Assembly: GCF_900103345.1 (NCBI RefSeq) | Contig: NZ_LT629702.1 | Span: forward strand, 5,557,501 to 5,621,500 | Length of the DNA: 64,000 bases | Origin: Pseudomonas azotoformans | GTDB taxonomy: Bacteria; Pseudomonadota; Gammaproteobacteria; Pseudomonadales; Pseudomonadaceae | Direction of reading: 5' to 3' | In this document: piece after piece, positions 1 through 58,170 of the stretch | How the letters are laid out: each line of letters begins with the position of its first letter | How positions within the stretch are numbered: position 1 is the stretch's first letter | The notes under the pieces: generated by a model | Seen by the model: the letters and a program-made list of their open reading frames with translations, nothing else | Database searches by the model: none | What the model was told of the DNA's origin: nothing | Translations under genes and position numbers: made by a program

Positions 1-541
<541 letters not shown>

Positions 542-40129: not shown

Positions 40130-40681
40130 TTAGGGATACTTCGAGTTGTGGGTGGCACGTTTAAGCTGTTCGCGCGCCCGTGATAGGCGTGATCGAACCG
40201 TCCCGATCGGAATGTCTAGTGCGTCGGCGGTGTCCTGGTAGCTGCCGTCAGTTTCCAGTGAGGCGTACAGCGTCTTGCGCATTTCTATCGGTAGGTGGTC
40301 TATGGCGCTCAAGGTTTTCTCCAGGCGCCGATTGATTTCAAATTCCCAGTCCAGGTTTTGCGTGTCTTCCTGGCCATGCCACAGCGATTCATCGAATTCG
40401 CAATGCACGGGTTTGGCATACAGGCGTCTGAAGTGGTTGCGTATGAGGTTTTGCGCGATACCGCACATCCAAGTGCTGAGCGTGGCATTCCCGCTGAAAC
40501 GTTCACGGTTGCGCCAGGCTTCCAGGTAGGTCAATTGCAGAAGGTCGTCTGCATCTTCGGGGTTGAGTACGCGCTTGTGAATGAAGCGCCGAAGTTTTTT
40601 TTGCTGGTCGTCTGTCAGGTGAAGCATGAATTGAGGCGAGCTGCCAACCAGGTGCGCTAAAGCTTCAATAGGGATATTCAT
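40130..40681 (-). CDS. rspL: ECF sigma factor RspL (HrpL family), activator of type III secretion
   Basis: This 183-aa extracytoplasmic-function sigma factor recognises hrp boxes and switches on the secretion operons. Sigma-2 (LQLTYLEAWRN, TWMCGIAQNLIRNHFRR) and sigma-4 (YQDTADALDIPIGTVRSRLSRAREQL) segments closely resemble P. syringae HrpL. The open frame runs back to 40849, but ATG at 40681 is the start: AAGGA lies upstream and a sigma-54 promoter at 40733-40749 is inside the longer frame. Transcribed alone, divergent from the rspJ operon. A GC-rich hairpin (40090-40118) follows without a U tract. Confidence 0.92.
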   Translation of the reverse strand: MNIPIEALAHLVGSSPQFMLHLTDDQQKKLRRFIHKRVLNPEDADDLLQLTYLEAWRNRERFSGNATLSTWMCGIAQNLIRNHFRRLYAKPVHCEFDESLWHGQEDTQNLDWEFEINRRLEKTLSAIDHLPIEMRKTLYASLETDGSYQDTADALDIPIGTVRSRLSRAREQLKRATHNSKYP

Positions 40682-40732
40682 GGATTTTTCCTTGGAGTAG
40701 ACGCAGTCGAAAGGTGTCGACGAGAACCCCGG

Positions 40733-40749
40733 TTGCACTGGCTGTGCCA
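40733..40749 (-). promoter_or_regulatory. Sigma-54 promoter of rspL
   Basis: On the minus strand TGGCACAGCCAGTGCAA has GG and GC exactly 10 nt apart, the -24/-12 spacing of sigma-54 promoters. Transcription would begin near 40724, about 43 nt before the rspL start. HrpR/S-type activators drive hrpL this way in P. syringae, so RspR is the expected activator. Confidence 0.82.
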
Positions 40750-40883
40750 GGCGGAAAAAACTCATAAGATATTGATTTATATACATAAATATCTTGTATT
40801 GATGCGATTTTGTGCAAGGGTTTGCATAGAGCGTTGCAAGCGCGTGCAAGTCTTTTCAAATGTGCAGTCGGCCGTTTGTTGAT

Positions 40884-40912
40884 GGAACTGTTTGGGCAGG
40901 TCTTGCCACACA
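40884..40912 (+). promoter_or_regulatory. hrp box promoter of the rspJ-rscU operon
   Basis: GGAACT, 16 nt, then CCACACA match the HrpL-type promoter consensus (GGAACC-N16-CCACNNA). It ends 30 bp before the rspJ start, which supports the ATG at 40943. Confidence 0.88.
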
Positions 40913-48886: not shown

Positions 48887-48893
48887 GTGGTTT

Positions 48894-49157
48894 ATGGAAC
48901 CCATCGTGCTGTTCAAGCAAGGCATGTTGCTGGTGGTTGTGCTGTCGGCACCGCCGTTGATCATAGCAGTGGTGGTGGGCGTGATGACGTCCCTGGTGCA
49001 GGCGTTGATGCAGGTGCAGGACCAGACATTGCCCTTCGGCATCAAGCTGGTGGCGGTGGGGATCACACTCATCATGACCGGCCGTTGGATTGGCGTGGAG
49101 TTGATCCAGCTGATGAACCTGACCTTTGACATGATCGGCCGGTCGGCCTTGAACTGA
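48894..49157 (+). CDS. sctS: Type III secretion export apparatus RscS (HrcS/SctS)
   Basis: This 87-aa FliQ-family protein has two membrane helices (about 10-35 and 48-72) and the conserved linker TSLVQALMQVQDQTLPFG. Four copies pack around SctR/SctT. Starts 7 bp after sctR. Confidence 0.94.
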   Translation: MEPIVLFKQGMLLVVVLSAPPLIIAVVVGVMTSLVQALMQVQDQTLPFGIKLVAVGITLIMTGRWIGVELIQLMNLTFDMIGRSALN

Positions 49158-49167
49158 GACCCTGCCC

Positions 49168-53763: not shown

Positions 53764-54183
53764 TCAGTGCAGCGGCTTACGTAACGCAGTGGCGTGGCTC
53801 TTGCGCGCAGGTTTCGCTTGGCGAGCAACGACTCTGCGCCAGGTATCGCGCTGGTTCAGGAGTGCCTCAAGAGCGTTCAACAGTTGGTCCAGGCTGCAAC
53901 CCCGTGACAGGCCTTGCATCAGCCAGAGGTGGCCGGTACTGGGACATAGGGCCAGTGTGCCCTTGAAATGCGCCAGGCTGGGTCCTCCGAGACGCAGCCA
54001 GGCCTGCAATGGGTAGCTTGTGAGACCAGGGCGAGTCAGTTGAATACGCAGCAGCAGATGATTTTCATGGCAATTCAGGCTCAGCTCGTCGTCGTTTTCA
54101 TACAGCCTCGCGTTCGATTGATGGCCATTCAAACAATCAAGCAAGGCTGAGCGCCAATCATCAGGAGCTGTTTGCGAGAACAT
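53764..54183 (-). CDS. rspG: Chaperone-like protein RspG (HrpG-like)
   Basis: This 139-aa protein, in the place of hrpG, resembles type III chaperones in size and in its alternating strands, with a basic C-terminal tail. In P. syringae HrpG relieves HrpV repression and so couples assembly to gene expression. Overlaps rspF by 23 nt. The call is by position and general character. Confidence 0.75.
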   Translation of the reverse strand: MFSQTAPDDWRSALLDCLNGHQSNARLYENDDELSLNCHENHLLLRIQLTRPGLTSYPLQAWLRLGGPSLAHFKGTLALCPSTGHLWLMQGLSRGCSLDQLLNALEALLNQRDTWRRVVARQAKPARKSHATALRKPLH

Positions 54184-54397
54184 AGTTGATCGTCTCGTTC
54201 TTGAGGCTGTGCAAGGCTGACGCCATCGACATTTTCTTGGCCATGCCGAGTGATTGCTCGGTCATCTGGGTGAACAGCGTTTTCAGCTCTTCTATGTCTT
54301 GCATTTCATGAATGCCATTTGTGAATTGACTGAAGTTTCTTTCGTCCTGGGCCAGCTCTCGGTATAGCTTCGGAAGCCTGCGGTCGTCACCAATCAT
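54161..54397 (-). CDS. rspF: Small type III secretion protein RspF (HrpF-like)
   Basis: This 78-aa mainly helical protein is the first gene of the rspF-rspG-rscC-rspT-rspV operon. It sits where hrpF lies in P. syringae. The ATG at 54397 is chosen because a hrp box ends 28 bp upstream; the longer frame to 54481 would run through that promoter. Confidence 0.8.
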   Translation of the reverse strand: MIGDDRRLPKLYRELAQDERNFSQFTNGIHEMQDIEELKTLFTQMTEQSLGMAKKMSMASALHSLKNETINYVLANSS

Positions 54398-54424
54398 GGG
54401 TTGTCTCCGGTGGTTGCTAGCTGA

Positions 54425-54453
54425 TGTGTGGCCGCAGATGTGTAACAGGTTCC
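54425..54453 (-). promoter_or_regulatory. hrp box promoter of the rspF operon
   Basis: On the minus strand GGAACC, 16 nt, then CCACACA: a perfect HrpL-type promoter. It ends 28 bp before rspF and lies just past the stop of sctL. Confidence 0.92.
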
Positions 54454-54484
54454 ATCTGTCTGGAAATTTGTTAAAAAACATCGC

Positions 54485-55089: not shown

Positions 55090-55644
55090 TCACGAAGGCA
55101 GGTGTTGGGTTTCGTTGAGGGGGGTTGAAGTTGCCCGCCAGAGCGCGGCTTGCCACATGGTGTCCAAGCGGCCGTGGGTGCTGAGCAACCTGGGGTGGGA
55201 TTCCAGTTCAAGTACTCGCTCGCGGGCAAAGCTCAGACGCAAACGCTGCCAGATGGCCGGTGATACCCAGGCGCGCAGGTAATGCAGCGGGTCGTCAACG
55301 TTCACCGGCAACAGCACCTCGGGTGTCATTGCCTTGGTCAGGCGCTGGCACCAGAGGTGATGTGCCTGGTTCAAGCGGCTGTCGTGGCTGGGGTTGTCTA
55401 TTTCTCTGACCAATAAAAGAGCAAGGTCTTGTTGTGACGGACTACAGGTCAGTACCAGTTGAAATACAGGCTCAGAAGGGCGGGGAGGAAGTTCAGGCTC
55501 GATCTCGAACAGAAGGCTCACCCGTTGATGATAAGCGCGTGAAAGCGCCTCTGTTTCCACAAAGCGGTTCTGCATGCGCCAGTCGCGGTGCGCGTTTTCC
55601 CATGGGGAAACCCACCATCGAACCCACATGAGGTTCTTATTCAT
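55090..55644 (-). CDS. sctK: Type III secretion adaptor RspD (HrpD/SctK)
   Basis: This 184-aa SctK-type component of the sorting platform links SctD to SctQ. Trp-rich N-terminus (MWVRWWVSPWENAHRDW) and otherwise helical. The start is uncertain between 55644 and 55629; the first overlaps the sctJ stop by 8 nt. Identification is by position and size. Confidence 0.78.
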   Translation of the reverse strand: MNKNLMWVRWWVSPWENAHRDWRMQNRFVETEALSRAYHQRVSLLFEIEPELPPRPSEPVFQLVLTCSPSQQDLALLLVREIDNPSHDSRLNQAHHLWCQRLTKAMTPEVLLPVNVDDPLHYLRAWVSPAIWQRLRLSFARERVLELESHPRLLSTHGRLDTMWQAALWRATSTPLNETQHLPS

Positions 55645-56422
55645 AAGAAGGTACGGTCGCAGACTCTTTCGGCGGGTTGTCCTTGGTCCGTCGGCGCCAG
55701 AATAACCATGCAGCACCTCCCAGCAGTAAGGCGATCAAGGAGGCCATGATACTGGTGCGCCAGAACACGAGGTCTTGCTCCGGTACCAGGAAGGGCCCGA
55801 GGTAGTTGAGTTGCTGCGTCTCCTGATAAGCGGTAGCCGGCACGAAAACGACGGTCAGTTTTTGCGTATTTTCTATCGCTGAGGCCATACCGGGGATGCT
55901 GCTGGCAACCATTCTGCGCACGCGCGGTTGAATGTTGTCGGGGTCTAGTCGCGGATCATGCTTGATAAACACCGAGGCGGACGCCGGTTGTACCGGTTCT
56001 CCAGGCGCCACCCGCTCCGGCAGCACAACATGGACACGCGCAACGATCACACCATCGATGTTCGACAGCGTGGCTTCCAATTCTTGTGACAGTGCATAGA
56101 TATAGCGCGCCCGCTCTTCCAGCGGGGTGGAAATTACCCCCTCTTTGCGAAAGATATCTCCTAACGTGGAGCGGCCCACTTTGGGTAGACCGGCGGCCTC
56201 CAGCGTGCGAACAGCACGGCTGATGTCGTTGGCCCGGACGCGAACGACCACGCCGTCTTTGGCCGGAATCTTCTGGGCGCGGATCTGCTTGTCCGCCAGC
56301 TCGGCAACGACTTCGTTGGCTTCCTGCTCGGACAACTGGCGATGGAGTTCAACACTCTCACCGCAGCCGGCGAGCATCAATGTCGATAAACAAAAGAGTG
56401 TGATGGATAGATAGCGATGCAT
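55637..56422 (-). CDS. sctJ: Type III secretion inner-ring lipoprotein RscJ (HrcJ/SctJ)
   Basis: This 261-aa lipoprotein has a lipobox LAGC (C20), two periplasmic ring-building domains joined by a linker, and a C-terminal membrane helix (about 222-243) followed by a basic tail. It forms the inner of the two inner-membrane rings. Conserved segments EVVAELADKQIRAQKIPAKD and VVLPERV are present. Confidence 0.95.
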   Translation of the reverse strand: MHRYLSITLFCLSTLMLAGCGESVELHRQLSEQEANEVVAELADKQIRAQKIPAKDGVVVRVRANDISRAVRTLEAAGLPKVGRSTLGDIFRKEGVISTPLEERARYIYALSQELEATLSNIDGVIVARVHVVLPERVAPGEPVQPASASVFIKHDPRLDPDNIQPRVRRMVASSIPGMASAIENTQKLTVVFVPATAYQETQQLNYLGPFLVPEQDLVFWRTSIMASLIALLLGGAAWLFWRRRTKDNPPKESATVPSYE

Positions 56423-56426
56423 GCGT

Positions 56427-56786
56427 CTAAGCCAGGTTGGAGATTTTATCGACGCCTTTCACCAGCATGCCGAGCACCTTGACTCGACTGACCACTTCAA
56501 AATTCGCGAGGGCGAGTGATTGTGGCAGTGCATAGGATTCTTTGGTCTGCTTGTTCCGCAGGGTGTCATCCATCCCTTTTTTCACGCGCTTGAACGACGA
56601 CTCAGAAGCGCTCAGGTTGAATAAGCTAACGGGAATAACAGGGGGGGTACTTTTGAAGAGCTCTGCGGAATGATCAAGTTGCGCGTTGAAGAAATTCATA
56701 TCAGCGATCTCATCAAATGCGGCGGGCGATTCAGCCAGAACCCCCCTGGACCCTATTTTCACGCGCTCGGCGTCGTCGATGTACAT
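56427..56786 (-). CDS. sctI: Type III secretion inner-rod protein RspB (HrpB/SctI)
   Basis: This 119-aa protein has a C-terminal helical part (FEVVSRVKVLGMLVKGVDKI) typical of inner-rod subunits that anchor the pilus to the export gate. AAGGAG lies 7 nt before the ATG. A run of seven Cs (56641-56647) lies within the gene. It follows the small pilin-candidate gene. Confidence 0.83.
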   Translation of the reverse strand: MYIDDAERVKIGSRGVLAESPAAFDEIADMNFFNAQLDHSAELFKSTPPVIPVSLFNLSASESSFKRVKKGMDDTLRNKQTKESYALPQSLALANFEVVSRVKVLGMLVKGVDKISNLA

Positions 56787-56836: not shown

Positions 56837-56869
56837 CTGGCACTCCCCAGCGCCAGCAGGGGAGGCCAG
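56837..56869 (-). other. Hairpin between the pilin candidate and rspB
   Basis: CTGGC-CTCCCC and GGGGAG-T-GCCAG form an 11-bp stem with one bulge, beginning 7 nt past the stop of the 57-aa ORF. No U tract follows, so it is more likely a 3' mRNA stabiliser or partial attenuator than a full terminator. This would let the small upstream gene be expressed far above rspB. Confidence 0.6.
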
Positions 56870-56875
56870 GATTAC

Positions 56876-57049
56876 TTAGCGTGGATATTGGACCTTGCCA
56901 GCGATCGTCATTTTCGAGTTGGCGCTATCAACCGCCTTGCTTGTCTTCGTGTCTTGGACGCCTTCTATGAGTCTCTCAACGGCAGTTTGCTGATTTTGTA
57001 GCCTGGCCCACGCTGCTGTACTATCTACCGGACTAATTGGAGTAGTCAT
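56876..57049 (-). CDS. 57-aa candidate type III pilin (HrpA-like, RspA)
   Basis: This small ORF starts MTTPISPVDSTAAWARLQNQ and ends VQYPR. It is polar, rich in Thr, Ser, Ala, Gln and Lys, free of cysteine and predicted helical, like Hrp pilins and needle subunits. AGAGGTAAC precedes the ATG, and a hrp box lies 87 bp upstream. It is the first gene before rspB, exactly where hrpA sits in P. syringae, and a hairpin follows. At 57 aa it is shorter than Erwinia HrpA (about 65 aa) and P. syringae HrpA (about 113 aa), but no other pilin candidate exists in the cluster. Confidence 0.68.
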   Translation of the reverse strand: MTTPISPVDSTAAWARLQNQQTAVERLIEGVQDTKTSKAVDSANSKMTIAGKVQYPR

Positions 57050-57135
57050 TCAAGTTACCTCTTTACTGAATATGAGAGTGTGCAGCGGTGGTTCTGCGTC
57101 TGCACAGTTTTTGAGCGATTGTGCTGCTCATATCC

Positions 57136-57164
57136 TGAGTGACTGATGCCGTGAGATTCGTTCC
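57136..57164 (-). promoter_or_regulatory. hrp box promoter of the rspA-rspE operon
   Basis: On the minus strand GGAACG, 16 nt, then TCACTCA. It matches the hrp box with the same 16-nt spacing as the other two boxes here and with single-base changes in each half. It lies 86 bp before the 57-aa ORF and is the only such site upstream of the rspB-rscJ-rspD-rspE genes. Confidence 0.82.
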
Positions 57165-57252: not shown

Positions 57253-58170
57253 TCAAGGGGTGAATACTTTTAGTTGTTTCATTCGATAGTAAAGCGTGCG
57301 AAGCGCGACCCCCAACTCTGTGGCTGCACTGTCGACGCTGTGTTCATGCCGCTGCAGCGACTCTTCAATCAATACTTTTTCGATCTGTTGCAGGCGTGCC
57401 TTCAAATTCATCTCTGTCTGGGGGGTAACGCTCGTAGGGAGCGGGGTTAGGCCCAACACGAAGCGTTTAGCGGCTGAACGAAGTTCGCGAACGTTGCCGA
57501 GCCAGGGGTGGCAGAGTAATTGCTGTAGTAGCGCGCCTGCTGGCGCTTGCACGGGGCACTTAAAGGCCTCTGCTTCTTGTTTGATCATATTAAGAAACAA
57601 CGGAATAATGAGCTCCCGTCGCTCCCGCAAAGGGGGAAGATGGATATTGACGATATTGAGACGGAAATACAGATCCCGTCGAAAGGCGCCTCGTTCCACC
57701 ATCTCATGCAGGGACTGCTGGGCAGAAGCGATGACACGCATATCCACTTGGATGAATCGGGTCGAGCCCAGGCGTTCGACCCCTCGACATTCCAGTACCC
57801 GCAGCAGCTTGGCTTGGAGCGACAACGGCATGCTATCGATTTCGTCGAGGTACAAGGTGCCCAAATGGGCGGCTTCTACAAAGCCGGCCCGCGATTGCAT
57901 CGCGCCGGTATAGGCACCGCTGTTGACACCGAACAATTGGCTCTCGGCAAGGGTTTCCGGTATGGCGGCACAGTTGACCGCAACAAAGTTTCCTTTGCGT
58001 CCGGATAAACAATGTATGCGTTGCGCCAGAGTGTCTTTTCCTGTGCCTGTTTCTCCGAGTAACAGAACATCAATGTTGAGTGGGGCGGTATTGCTGATAG
58101 CGTATTCAATGTCAGGGCAGTCGATGAAAGGTATGTCATTCAACAAGTTGTTTTGGTCAGGGATCAGCAT
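57253..58170 (-). CDS. rspR: Sigma-54 enhancer-binding protein RspR (HrpR/HrpS type)
   Basis: This 305-aa activator has only an AAA+ domain and a C-terminal helix-turn-helix, without a receiver domain, like HrpR and HrpS. Walker A is GETGTGKD (residues 38-45), the sigma-54 contact loop GAYTGA is intact near 86, and the DNA-binding helix lies near 280 (ATELGVALRTLYYRMKQL). P. syringae uses a HrpR-HrpS pair; only one gene is present here, so it should act as a homohexamer. Expected target is the sigma-54 promoter of rspL. Confidence 0.92.
   Translation of the reverse strand: MLIPDQNNLLNDIPFIDCPDIEYAISNTAPLNIDVLLLGETGTGKDTLAQRIHCLSGRKGNFVAVNCAAIPETLAESQLFGVNSGAYTGAMQSRAGFVEAAHLGTLYLDEIDSMPLSLQAKLLRVLECRGVERLGSTRFIQVDMRVIASAQQSLHEMVERGAFRRDLYFRLNIVNIHLPPLRERRELIIPLFLNMIKQEAEAFKCPVQAPAGALLQQLLCHPWLGNVRELRSAAKRFVLGLTPLPTSVTPQTEMNLKARLQQIEKVLIEESLQRHEHSVDSAATELGVALRTLYYRMKQLKVFTP

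What the first reader, a model, noticed from the sequence alone, without database searches (positions are those of the whole stretch)
56837..57164. Unannotated 57-aa ORF as the type III pilin gene
The cluster has every apparatus gene except an obvious pilin. Between a hrp box (57136-57164) and rspB there is a 57-codon ORF with a good ribosome site, pilin-like composition and the exact hrpA position. It is below common gene-calling cut-offs, so it is easily missed. At 57 aa it would be among the smallest pilin/needle subunits known to me.
Basis: partly seen in the sequence, partly recalled or inferred. Interest (0 to 1): 0.75.

Follow-up and report, generated by a model that had tools for sequence, protein, structure and literature searches.

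The report
Minimal 57-residue type III pilin gene
A tiny, easily missed gene in a Pseudomonas type III secretion cluster sits where related bacteria keep equally small, fast-changing genes that are under selection as proteins, and it likely encodes the subunit of the secretion filament, which would make it one of the smallest such subunits known.

Summary
In detail: a 57-codon ORF (56876-57049, minus strand) with ATG and ribosome site lies between an rspR-like activator gene and rspB, its ATG 115 bases from the start of an imperfect hrp box (9 of 11 positions). Pfam, NCBIfam and a protein-catalogue search did not recognise it, and such an ORF arises in 3.7% of shuffles, so alone it is weak evidence. 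The relatives make the case. Of 77 readable related loci, 70 carry a small ORF at the same place. All 71 usable pairs show purifying selection. 60 of 69 follow a near-perfect hrp box, and 58 of 69 are followed at once by a stable RNA hairpin. Three of 56 members match Pfam HrpA_pilin; a 50-51-aa subgroup matches HrpA by profile comparison (85%), but the window's own group links to that subgroup only weakly (22%), so the last step is positional. Best reading: RspA, the type III pilin, a short and hypervariable member of a known kind (63-69 aa in other strains). The gene, the 50-57-aa size class and the hairpin are the additions. Function is inferred, not shown.

The parts
56876..57049 (-). 57-aa ORF, candidate pilin gene rspA (stop codon included)
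   Evidence: frame kept in relatives; pS above pN against the 3 nearest relatives
57058..57061 (-). ribosome site GAGG, 8 bases ahead of the ATG
   Evidence: sequence
57136..57164 (-). imperfect hrp box GGAACG-N16-TCACTCA, candidate RspL promoter
   Evidence: lines up with the boxes of L008, L010 and L087; 60 of 69 sequences of the set have 10-11 of 11 matches here
56837..56869 (-). RNA hairpin just after the rspA stop codon, predicted mRNA stabiliser or attenuator
   Evidence: -24.6 kcal/mol, z -3.9, 0 of 200 shuffles as stable; family: 58 of 69 with z below -2; over 70 bases the window's own z is -1.8
56427..56786 (-). rspB, inner-rod candidate (named by place)
   Evidence: no Pfam or NCBIfam match
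55637..56422 (-). rscJ (SctJ)
   Evidence: TIGR02544 206.1 bits, over cut-off
57253..58170 (-). rspR-like sigma-54 activator gene
   Evidence: PF00158 and HTH_8
54161..54397 (-). rspF candidate, 78 aa from the ATG after the hrp box 54425-54453
   Evidence: no Pfam match
40130..40849 (-). ECF sigma factor gene, probably rspL (by place)
   Evidence: TIGR02937 over cut-off

Best explanation
The ORF is a short gene whose fast-changing counterparts in related rsp-type clusters are under selection as proteins, and it likely encodes RspA, the pilin whose copies would stack into the secretion filament. Shown: place, open frame, selection on the protein in relatives, hrp-box position, hairpin. Inferred: the RspL sigma factor would start transcription at the hrp box; the hairpin right after the stop codon would protect the upstream piece of mRNA or thin out read-through, so that pilin is made in excess over rspB and the ring genes; the 57-aa protein, predicted to be almost wholly one helix, would be exported through the RscC/RscJ base and polymerise on the RspB rod into the conduit; its fast change would reflect exposure at the cell surface.
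For: Same place filled by a small ORF in 70 of 77 readable related loci. dN/dS below 1 in 71 of 71 usable pairs, median 0.195; the window against its 3 nearest relatives has pS 0.71, 0.79, 0.55 and pN 0.32, 0.30, 0.37. Box of 10-11 of 11 in 60 of 69 against 1 of 1380 shuffles. Hairpin in 58 of 69 against 19 of 300 random windows. Longer positional counterparts match HrpA_pilin: 3 of 56, and G272, whose RscJ is 71% identical. HrpA versus the 50-51-aa group 84.7%, reversed controls 0.2% or less. RspA and RspB change much faster than RscJ and RspR. Predicted helix 7-53. Published RspA of 63-69 aa (PMC4700148 passages). No other pilin or needle found by profile in the genome.
Against: The window protein itself matches neither HrpA nor SctF: HrpA profile E 14 in a database of 8156 ORFs, profile-profile 0.41%, Pfam none. 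Its link to the 50-51-aa group is only 22.4% (reversed controls 2.6 and 1.3%). The bridging group links to the 50-51-aa group at only 10.5%, and four of the other groups show nothing above 1.2% with HrpA. The box has 9 of 11, reached by 43 of 1380 shuffles. An HrpA rank test did not discriminate from reversed or shuffled profiles. No expression, secretion or filament data exist here.
Confidence: 0.87

Rival explanations
1. The ORF is a small secreted or regulatory protein of rsp clusters, and the filament is built from RspF (54161-54397) or from the needle of the second T3SS of this genome.
For: The window protein has no direct HrpA match. RspF is small and also has an hrp box, without mismatch. 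PMC2997014 (passages) says HrpF and HrpA are homologous. A second T3SS near 2.17-2.18 Mb has a 77-aa ORF beside a rod-like ORF.
Against: Longer counterparts at the rspA place, not at the rspF place, match HrpA_pilin. RspF sits after rspE, the HrpF place (recalled order of P. syringae). The second cluster is a separate set with its own export genes.
Confidence: 0.09
2. The frame is real and conserved but in this strain the gene is decaying, for example through its weaker hrp box, so no filament is made.
For: Box 9 of 11 where 60 of 69 have 10 or more.
Against: The frame is open, pS exceeds pN, and hairpin and ribosome site are intact. The export genes checked are open.
Confidence: 0.02
3. A chance open frame in an intergenic region.
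For: 3.7% of shuffles give such an ORF. No catalogue match.
Against: Same frame in L008, L010 and L087 with pS above pN. In-frame alignment scores are the best of all frame pairs for L008 (131) and L010 (154); for L087 the frame (92) is tied by an antisense frame.
Confidence: 0.02

Closest known systems
RspA / RspA1 of P. fluorescens-group rsp clusters (SBW25, 2P24, Q8r1-96, WH6, WCS374, P. synxantha BG33R)
   Same: Same place ahead of rspB (with rspZ between in 2P24), small, named as pilus component by place and weak similarity. PMC4700148 passages: 69 aa in 2P24, 63 aa in SBW25, 113 aa in DC3000. PMC2997014 passages: no homology found between rspA of WH6 and hrpA; the figure legend marks genes inferred by location. 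P0011 is named RspA.
   Different: 57 aa; 44-47% identical to the ORFs of L008 and L010 and about 40% to L087, 27% or less to the other family members aligned; not found in the protein catalogue.
HrpA pilin of P. syringae (PF09589)
   Same: Order activator gene - pilin - rod - SctJ, hrp box ahead, rapid change; for the 50-51-aa group a profile match over the C-terminal 41 columns.
   Different: About half the length; PF09589 does not match the window protein; no harpin gene between pilin and rod genes in the window.
SctF needle subunits (PF09392) and NopA of rhizobia
   Same: Small, mostly helical T3SS filament subunits; PMC3973906 passages give 63-71 aa for NopA and describe the pilins as helical except at the N-terminus.
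   Different: No PF09392 match in this genome at E up to 10; 57 aa is shorter than either range in that review.

Membership tests
RspA (rsp-cluster pilin) | small ORF between the activator gene and rspB-rscJ | tested here: met
RspA (rsp-cluster pilin) | hrp box ahead of the gene | tested here: inconclusive
   9 of 11 at the right distance; 43 of 1380 shuffles reach 9
RspA (rsp-cluster pilin) | sequence relation to other RspA proteins | tested here: met
   44, 47 and about 40% identity to L008, L010, L087 in frame; to other groups only weak profile links
RspA (rsp-cluster pilin) | protein is secreted and forms the filament | not testable with these tools
   needs an experiment
HrpA_pilin PF09589 | match to the curated profile | tested here: not met
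   none for the window protein; 3 of 56 family members match
HrpA_pilin PF09589 | relation to HrpA through intermediate groups | tested here: inconclusive
   HrpA to 50-51-aa group 84.7%, that group to the window's group 22.4%
SctF needle PF09392 | match to the curated profile | tested here: not met
   no match in the whole genome at E up to 10

The most novel reading that the evidence does not exclude
Rsp-type secretion systems build their filament from the smallest T3SS subunits known, 50-57 residues: HrpA stripped of its long N-terminus and, in the 50-51-aa group, of about 18 residues of the helical core, so that a single helix is the whole building block; and a hairpin after the gene, kept in shape while its letters turn over, sets the excess of pilin over the other parts.
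Probability: 0.5. Interest if true: 0.6.

Novelty: new member of a known kind. Interest (0 to 1): 0.42.

Why it matters
It supplies the missing filament part of a secretion machine whose other conserved export genes are present. It also points to a way of finding rsp pilins that gene callers and homology searches miss: by place, hrp box and 3' hairpin instead of sequence. The family offers natural candidate pilins of 50 to 95 residues for asking what the least filament subunit is, a question that a structure could settle, and it cautions against calling a cluster pilin-less from BLAST alone.

Tried and rejected
Direct homology of the window protein to HrpA or SctF: none. Stepwise profile search from HrpA: took in L064, L081, L070, L065 and L057, stopped with L014 at E 0.021, never reached the window. 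Rank test with an HrpA profile: the ORF ranks first in 42 of 67 loci, but a reversed profile gives 38 of 67 and five shuffled ones 19 to 39 of 67, so it reflects composition only and is not used. PDB sequence search with the family profile and with one HrpA: nothing relevant. Models are single helices (window 7-53, mean pLDDT 70.9, pTM 0.32; HrpA-type L075 6-67, 64.2, 0.31), so no fold search was run. Rfam: no match. No T-run terminator called at the hairpin. No column-by-column covariation count was made, because the stems do not stay in register in alignment A2.

Rows dropped. Of the 79 loci: L067 and L083 too short; in L075, L078 and L080 the ORF picked by rule lies in a long frame between pilin and rod genes; L061, L062 and L084 were read only and are not in the 69-sequence set (65 loci, L015, L027, L087, the window). 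In one search L084 was mis-sliced and still among the rows; 13 of 84 pairs had dS undefined or at most 0.1, among them L043/L073 with ratio 1.66 at dS 0.05. In one search the bin RscJ 0.95-1.01 comes from a wrongly extracted L045 and is not used. The HrpA profile used 14 of the 25 loci and the bridging group 4 more; the tails were read for 22 of those 25.

Full report
What is there. On the minus strand, 56876-57049 is an ATG-started 57-codon ORF with GAGG eight bases ahead. It lies in the 466-base gap between a sigma-54 activator gene (57253-58170; PF00158 and HTH_8) and rspB (56427-56786), followed by rscJ (TIGR02544 over cut-off). Other T3SS parts are present: SctW, V, D, N, Q, R, T, U (W, N and Q below their curated cut-offs), C, J, L and a SctS-like frame at 48887-49167 (named from its look and place). 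An ECF sigma gene, probably rspL, is at 40130-40849. hrp boxes without mismatch stand at 40884-40912 and 54425-54453; the one ahead of the ORF, 57136-57164, has two mismatches.

Is it more than chance? Taken alone, hardly. Shuffles of the gap give such an ORF in 3.7% of cases, and boxes at two mismatches are as common as chance in the window (26 found, 30.8 expected). No Pfam or NCBIfam model matched, and the catalogue search found no candidate.

Relatives. A scan with RscJ gave 79 loci, nearly all Pseudomonas. Two are too short. Of the other 77, 70 have a small ORF at the same place: 65 with ATG and ribosome site, 4 with ATG only (L015, L027, L061, L084), and L062 with a TTG start. Of the remaining 7, six (L074-L078, L080) have an ORF further upstream that an HrpA profile finds at E 6e-15 or better; five of these have a frame of 298-352 aa in between (hrpZ-like by place only). 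L085 (Paracoccus) shows none. The working set for measurement has 69 sequences: 65 loci plus L015, L027, L087 and the window.

Coding. Of 84 pairs of 55-99.5% identity, 71 had usable dS above 0.1; all 71 have dN/dS below 1, median 0.195 (one mis-sliced sequence, L084, was still in this set). For the window against L008, L010 and L087 (44, 47 and 40% identical) pS is 0.71, 0.79, 0.55 and pN 0.32, 0.30, 0.37. Lengths run from 50 to 95 aa, median 62; 17 of 69 are 57 aa or shorter.

Promoter. In the band 160-60 bases ahead of the ATG, 60 of 69 sequences have a box with 10 or 11 of 11 matches, against 1 of 1380 shuffles. The window has 9, reached by 43 of 1380 shuffles. Its box lines up with those of L008, L010 and L087 in the DNA alignment.

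Hairpin. Directly after the stop codon lies a stem-loop. In the 45 bases after the stop codon mean z is -4.28 and 58 of 69 fall below -2. The 45 bases before give 3 of 69, the next 45 after give 9 of 69, random windows 19 of 300. The stems differ in sequence from group to group yet stay paired (listing). The window's stem, 56837-56869, has -24.6 kcal/mol, z -3.9, and none of 200 shuffles folds as well; over 70 bases its z is -1.8. Of 22 HrpA-type tails read (of the 25 loci), 20 show a GC-rich stem-loop by eye, but only 6 have z below -2. No run of T follows the stem in the window. I read it as a stabiliser or partial terminator favouring pilin over downstream subunits; this is inference.

HrpA or not? 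PF09589 does not see the window protein. It matches 3 of 56 members of the family alignment, and in whole genomes it finds G272, whose RscJ is 71% identical to the window's, over the cut-off about 0.5 kb ahead of rscJ. Profile-profile comparison gives HrpA to bridging members 97.4% and HrpA to the 50-51-aa group 84.7%, over 41 columns that end at the shared C-terminus. The 50-51-aa group gives 82.7 and 89.3% with two further groups. Reversed controls for these four are 1.5% or less. The weaker side: that group to the window's group 22.4% (controls 2.6 and 1.3%), bridging group to 50-51-aa group 10.5%, HrpA to the window's group 0.41%, and HrpA to the four remaining groups 0.06-1.15%. In alignment with the long members, the 50-51-aa proteins lack about 18 residues of the core. 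So the tie to HrpA is a chain with a weak last link, and the place carries that step.

Hypervariability. At RscJ identity 0.80-0.85 (120 pairs) median identity is 0.79 for RspR, 0.44 for RspB and 0.30 for RspA; shuffled RspA pairs average 0.15. This fits a surface filament and its rod.

Another pilin elsewhere? A profile of the family, which includes this ORF, finds it (E 3e-7) and one chance-level place (E 0.16) in the genome. HrpA_pilin has nothing better than E 7.3, SctF nothing. The genome does have a second T3SS near 2.17-2.18 Mb with a split SctC. Beside a rod-like ORF it has a 77-aa ORF without Pfam match, its own needle candidate by place.

What is known. PMC4700148 (passages, 12 of 22 places) lists a pilus protein of 69 aa in 2P24 and 63 aa in SBW25. 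PMC2997014 (passages, 12 of 16 places) reports no homology between rspA of WH6 and hrpA and calls HrpA and HrpF the most polymorphic proteins of the cluster. PMC3973906 (passages, all 9 places found) gives 66-113 and 63-71 aa as pilin sizes. In one search, 30 catalogued proteins match the family profile: one is named RspA, five 'type III secretion protein', and two of the 51-aa ones 'hypothetical protein'. So the kind is known; this gene and the 50-57-aa size class are additions. For a hairpin after hrpA I searched (20 of 113 papers listed, none with the phrase 'hrpA mRNA'; 11 listed of 12) and five terms in PMC8228185 (none found); I read none of the papers listed for it in full, so its absence from print is not established. 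From memory, long-lived hrpA mRNA has been reported in P. syringae; no call shows it.

Verdict. A real gene, very probably the pilin RspA; function untested. Ordinary in kind, unusual in size, and a guide to other missed pilins.

Noticed in passing
L050:4323-4523 (P. simiae CCUG 50988): A 66-aa ORF with ribosome site, hrp box (10 of 11) and following hairpin sits at the rspA place, although PMC6647874 (passages) reports that P. simiae WCS417, another strain, lacks rspA. WCS417 itself was not examined.
   Followed up: partly
G000:C1 about 2.170-2.184 Mb (L143): Second non-flagellar T3SS with SctU, T, R, Q, N, L, J and a SctC split over two ORFs, with a 77-aa needle candidate at L143:15180-15413. 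The split SctC recalls rhizobial-type systems (recalled).
   Followed up: partly
G000:C1:3065990-3067174: SctC-type secretin match (300 bits, over cut-off) away from both T3SS clusters; no SctV match lies near it.
   Followed up: no
54161-54481, minus strand: The longest ORF reading of rspF contains the hrp box 54425-54453, so the real start is more likely the ATG at 54397 (78 aa).
   Followed up: yes
40884-40912, plus strand: A hrp box without mismatch overlaps the GTG start (40892) of the SctW-type ORF, so that start is probably further in.
   Followed up: no
56427-56786 and 54161-54397: RspB and RspF also change fast between relatives with well conserved RscJ, as if the filament parts and their helpers evolve together.
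   Followed up: partly
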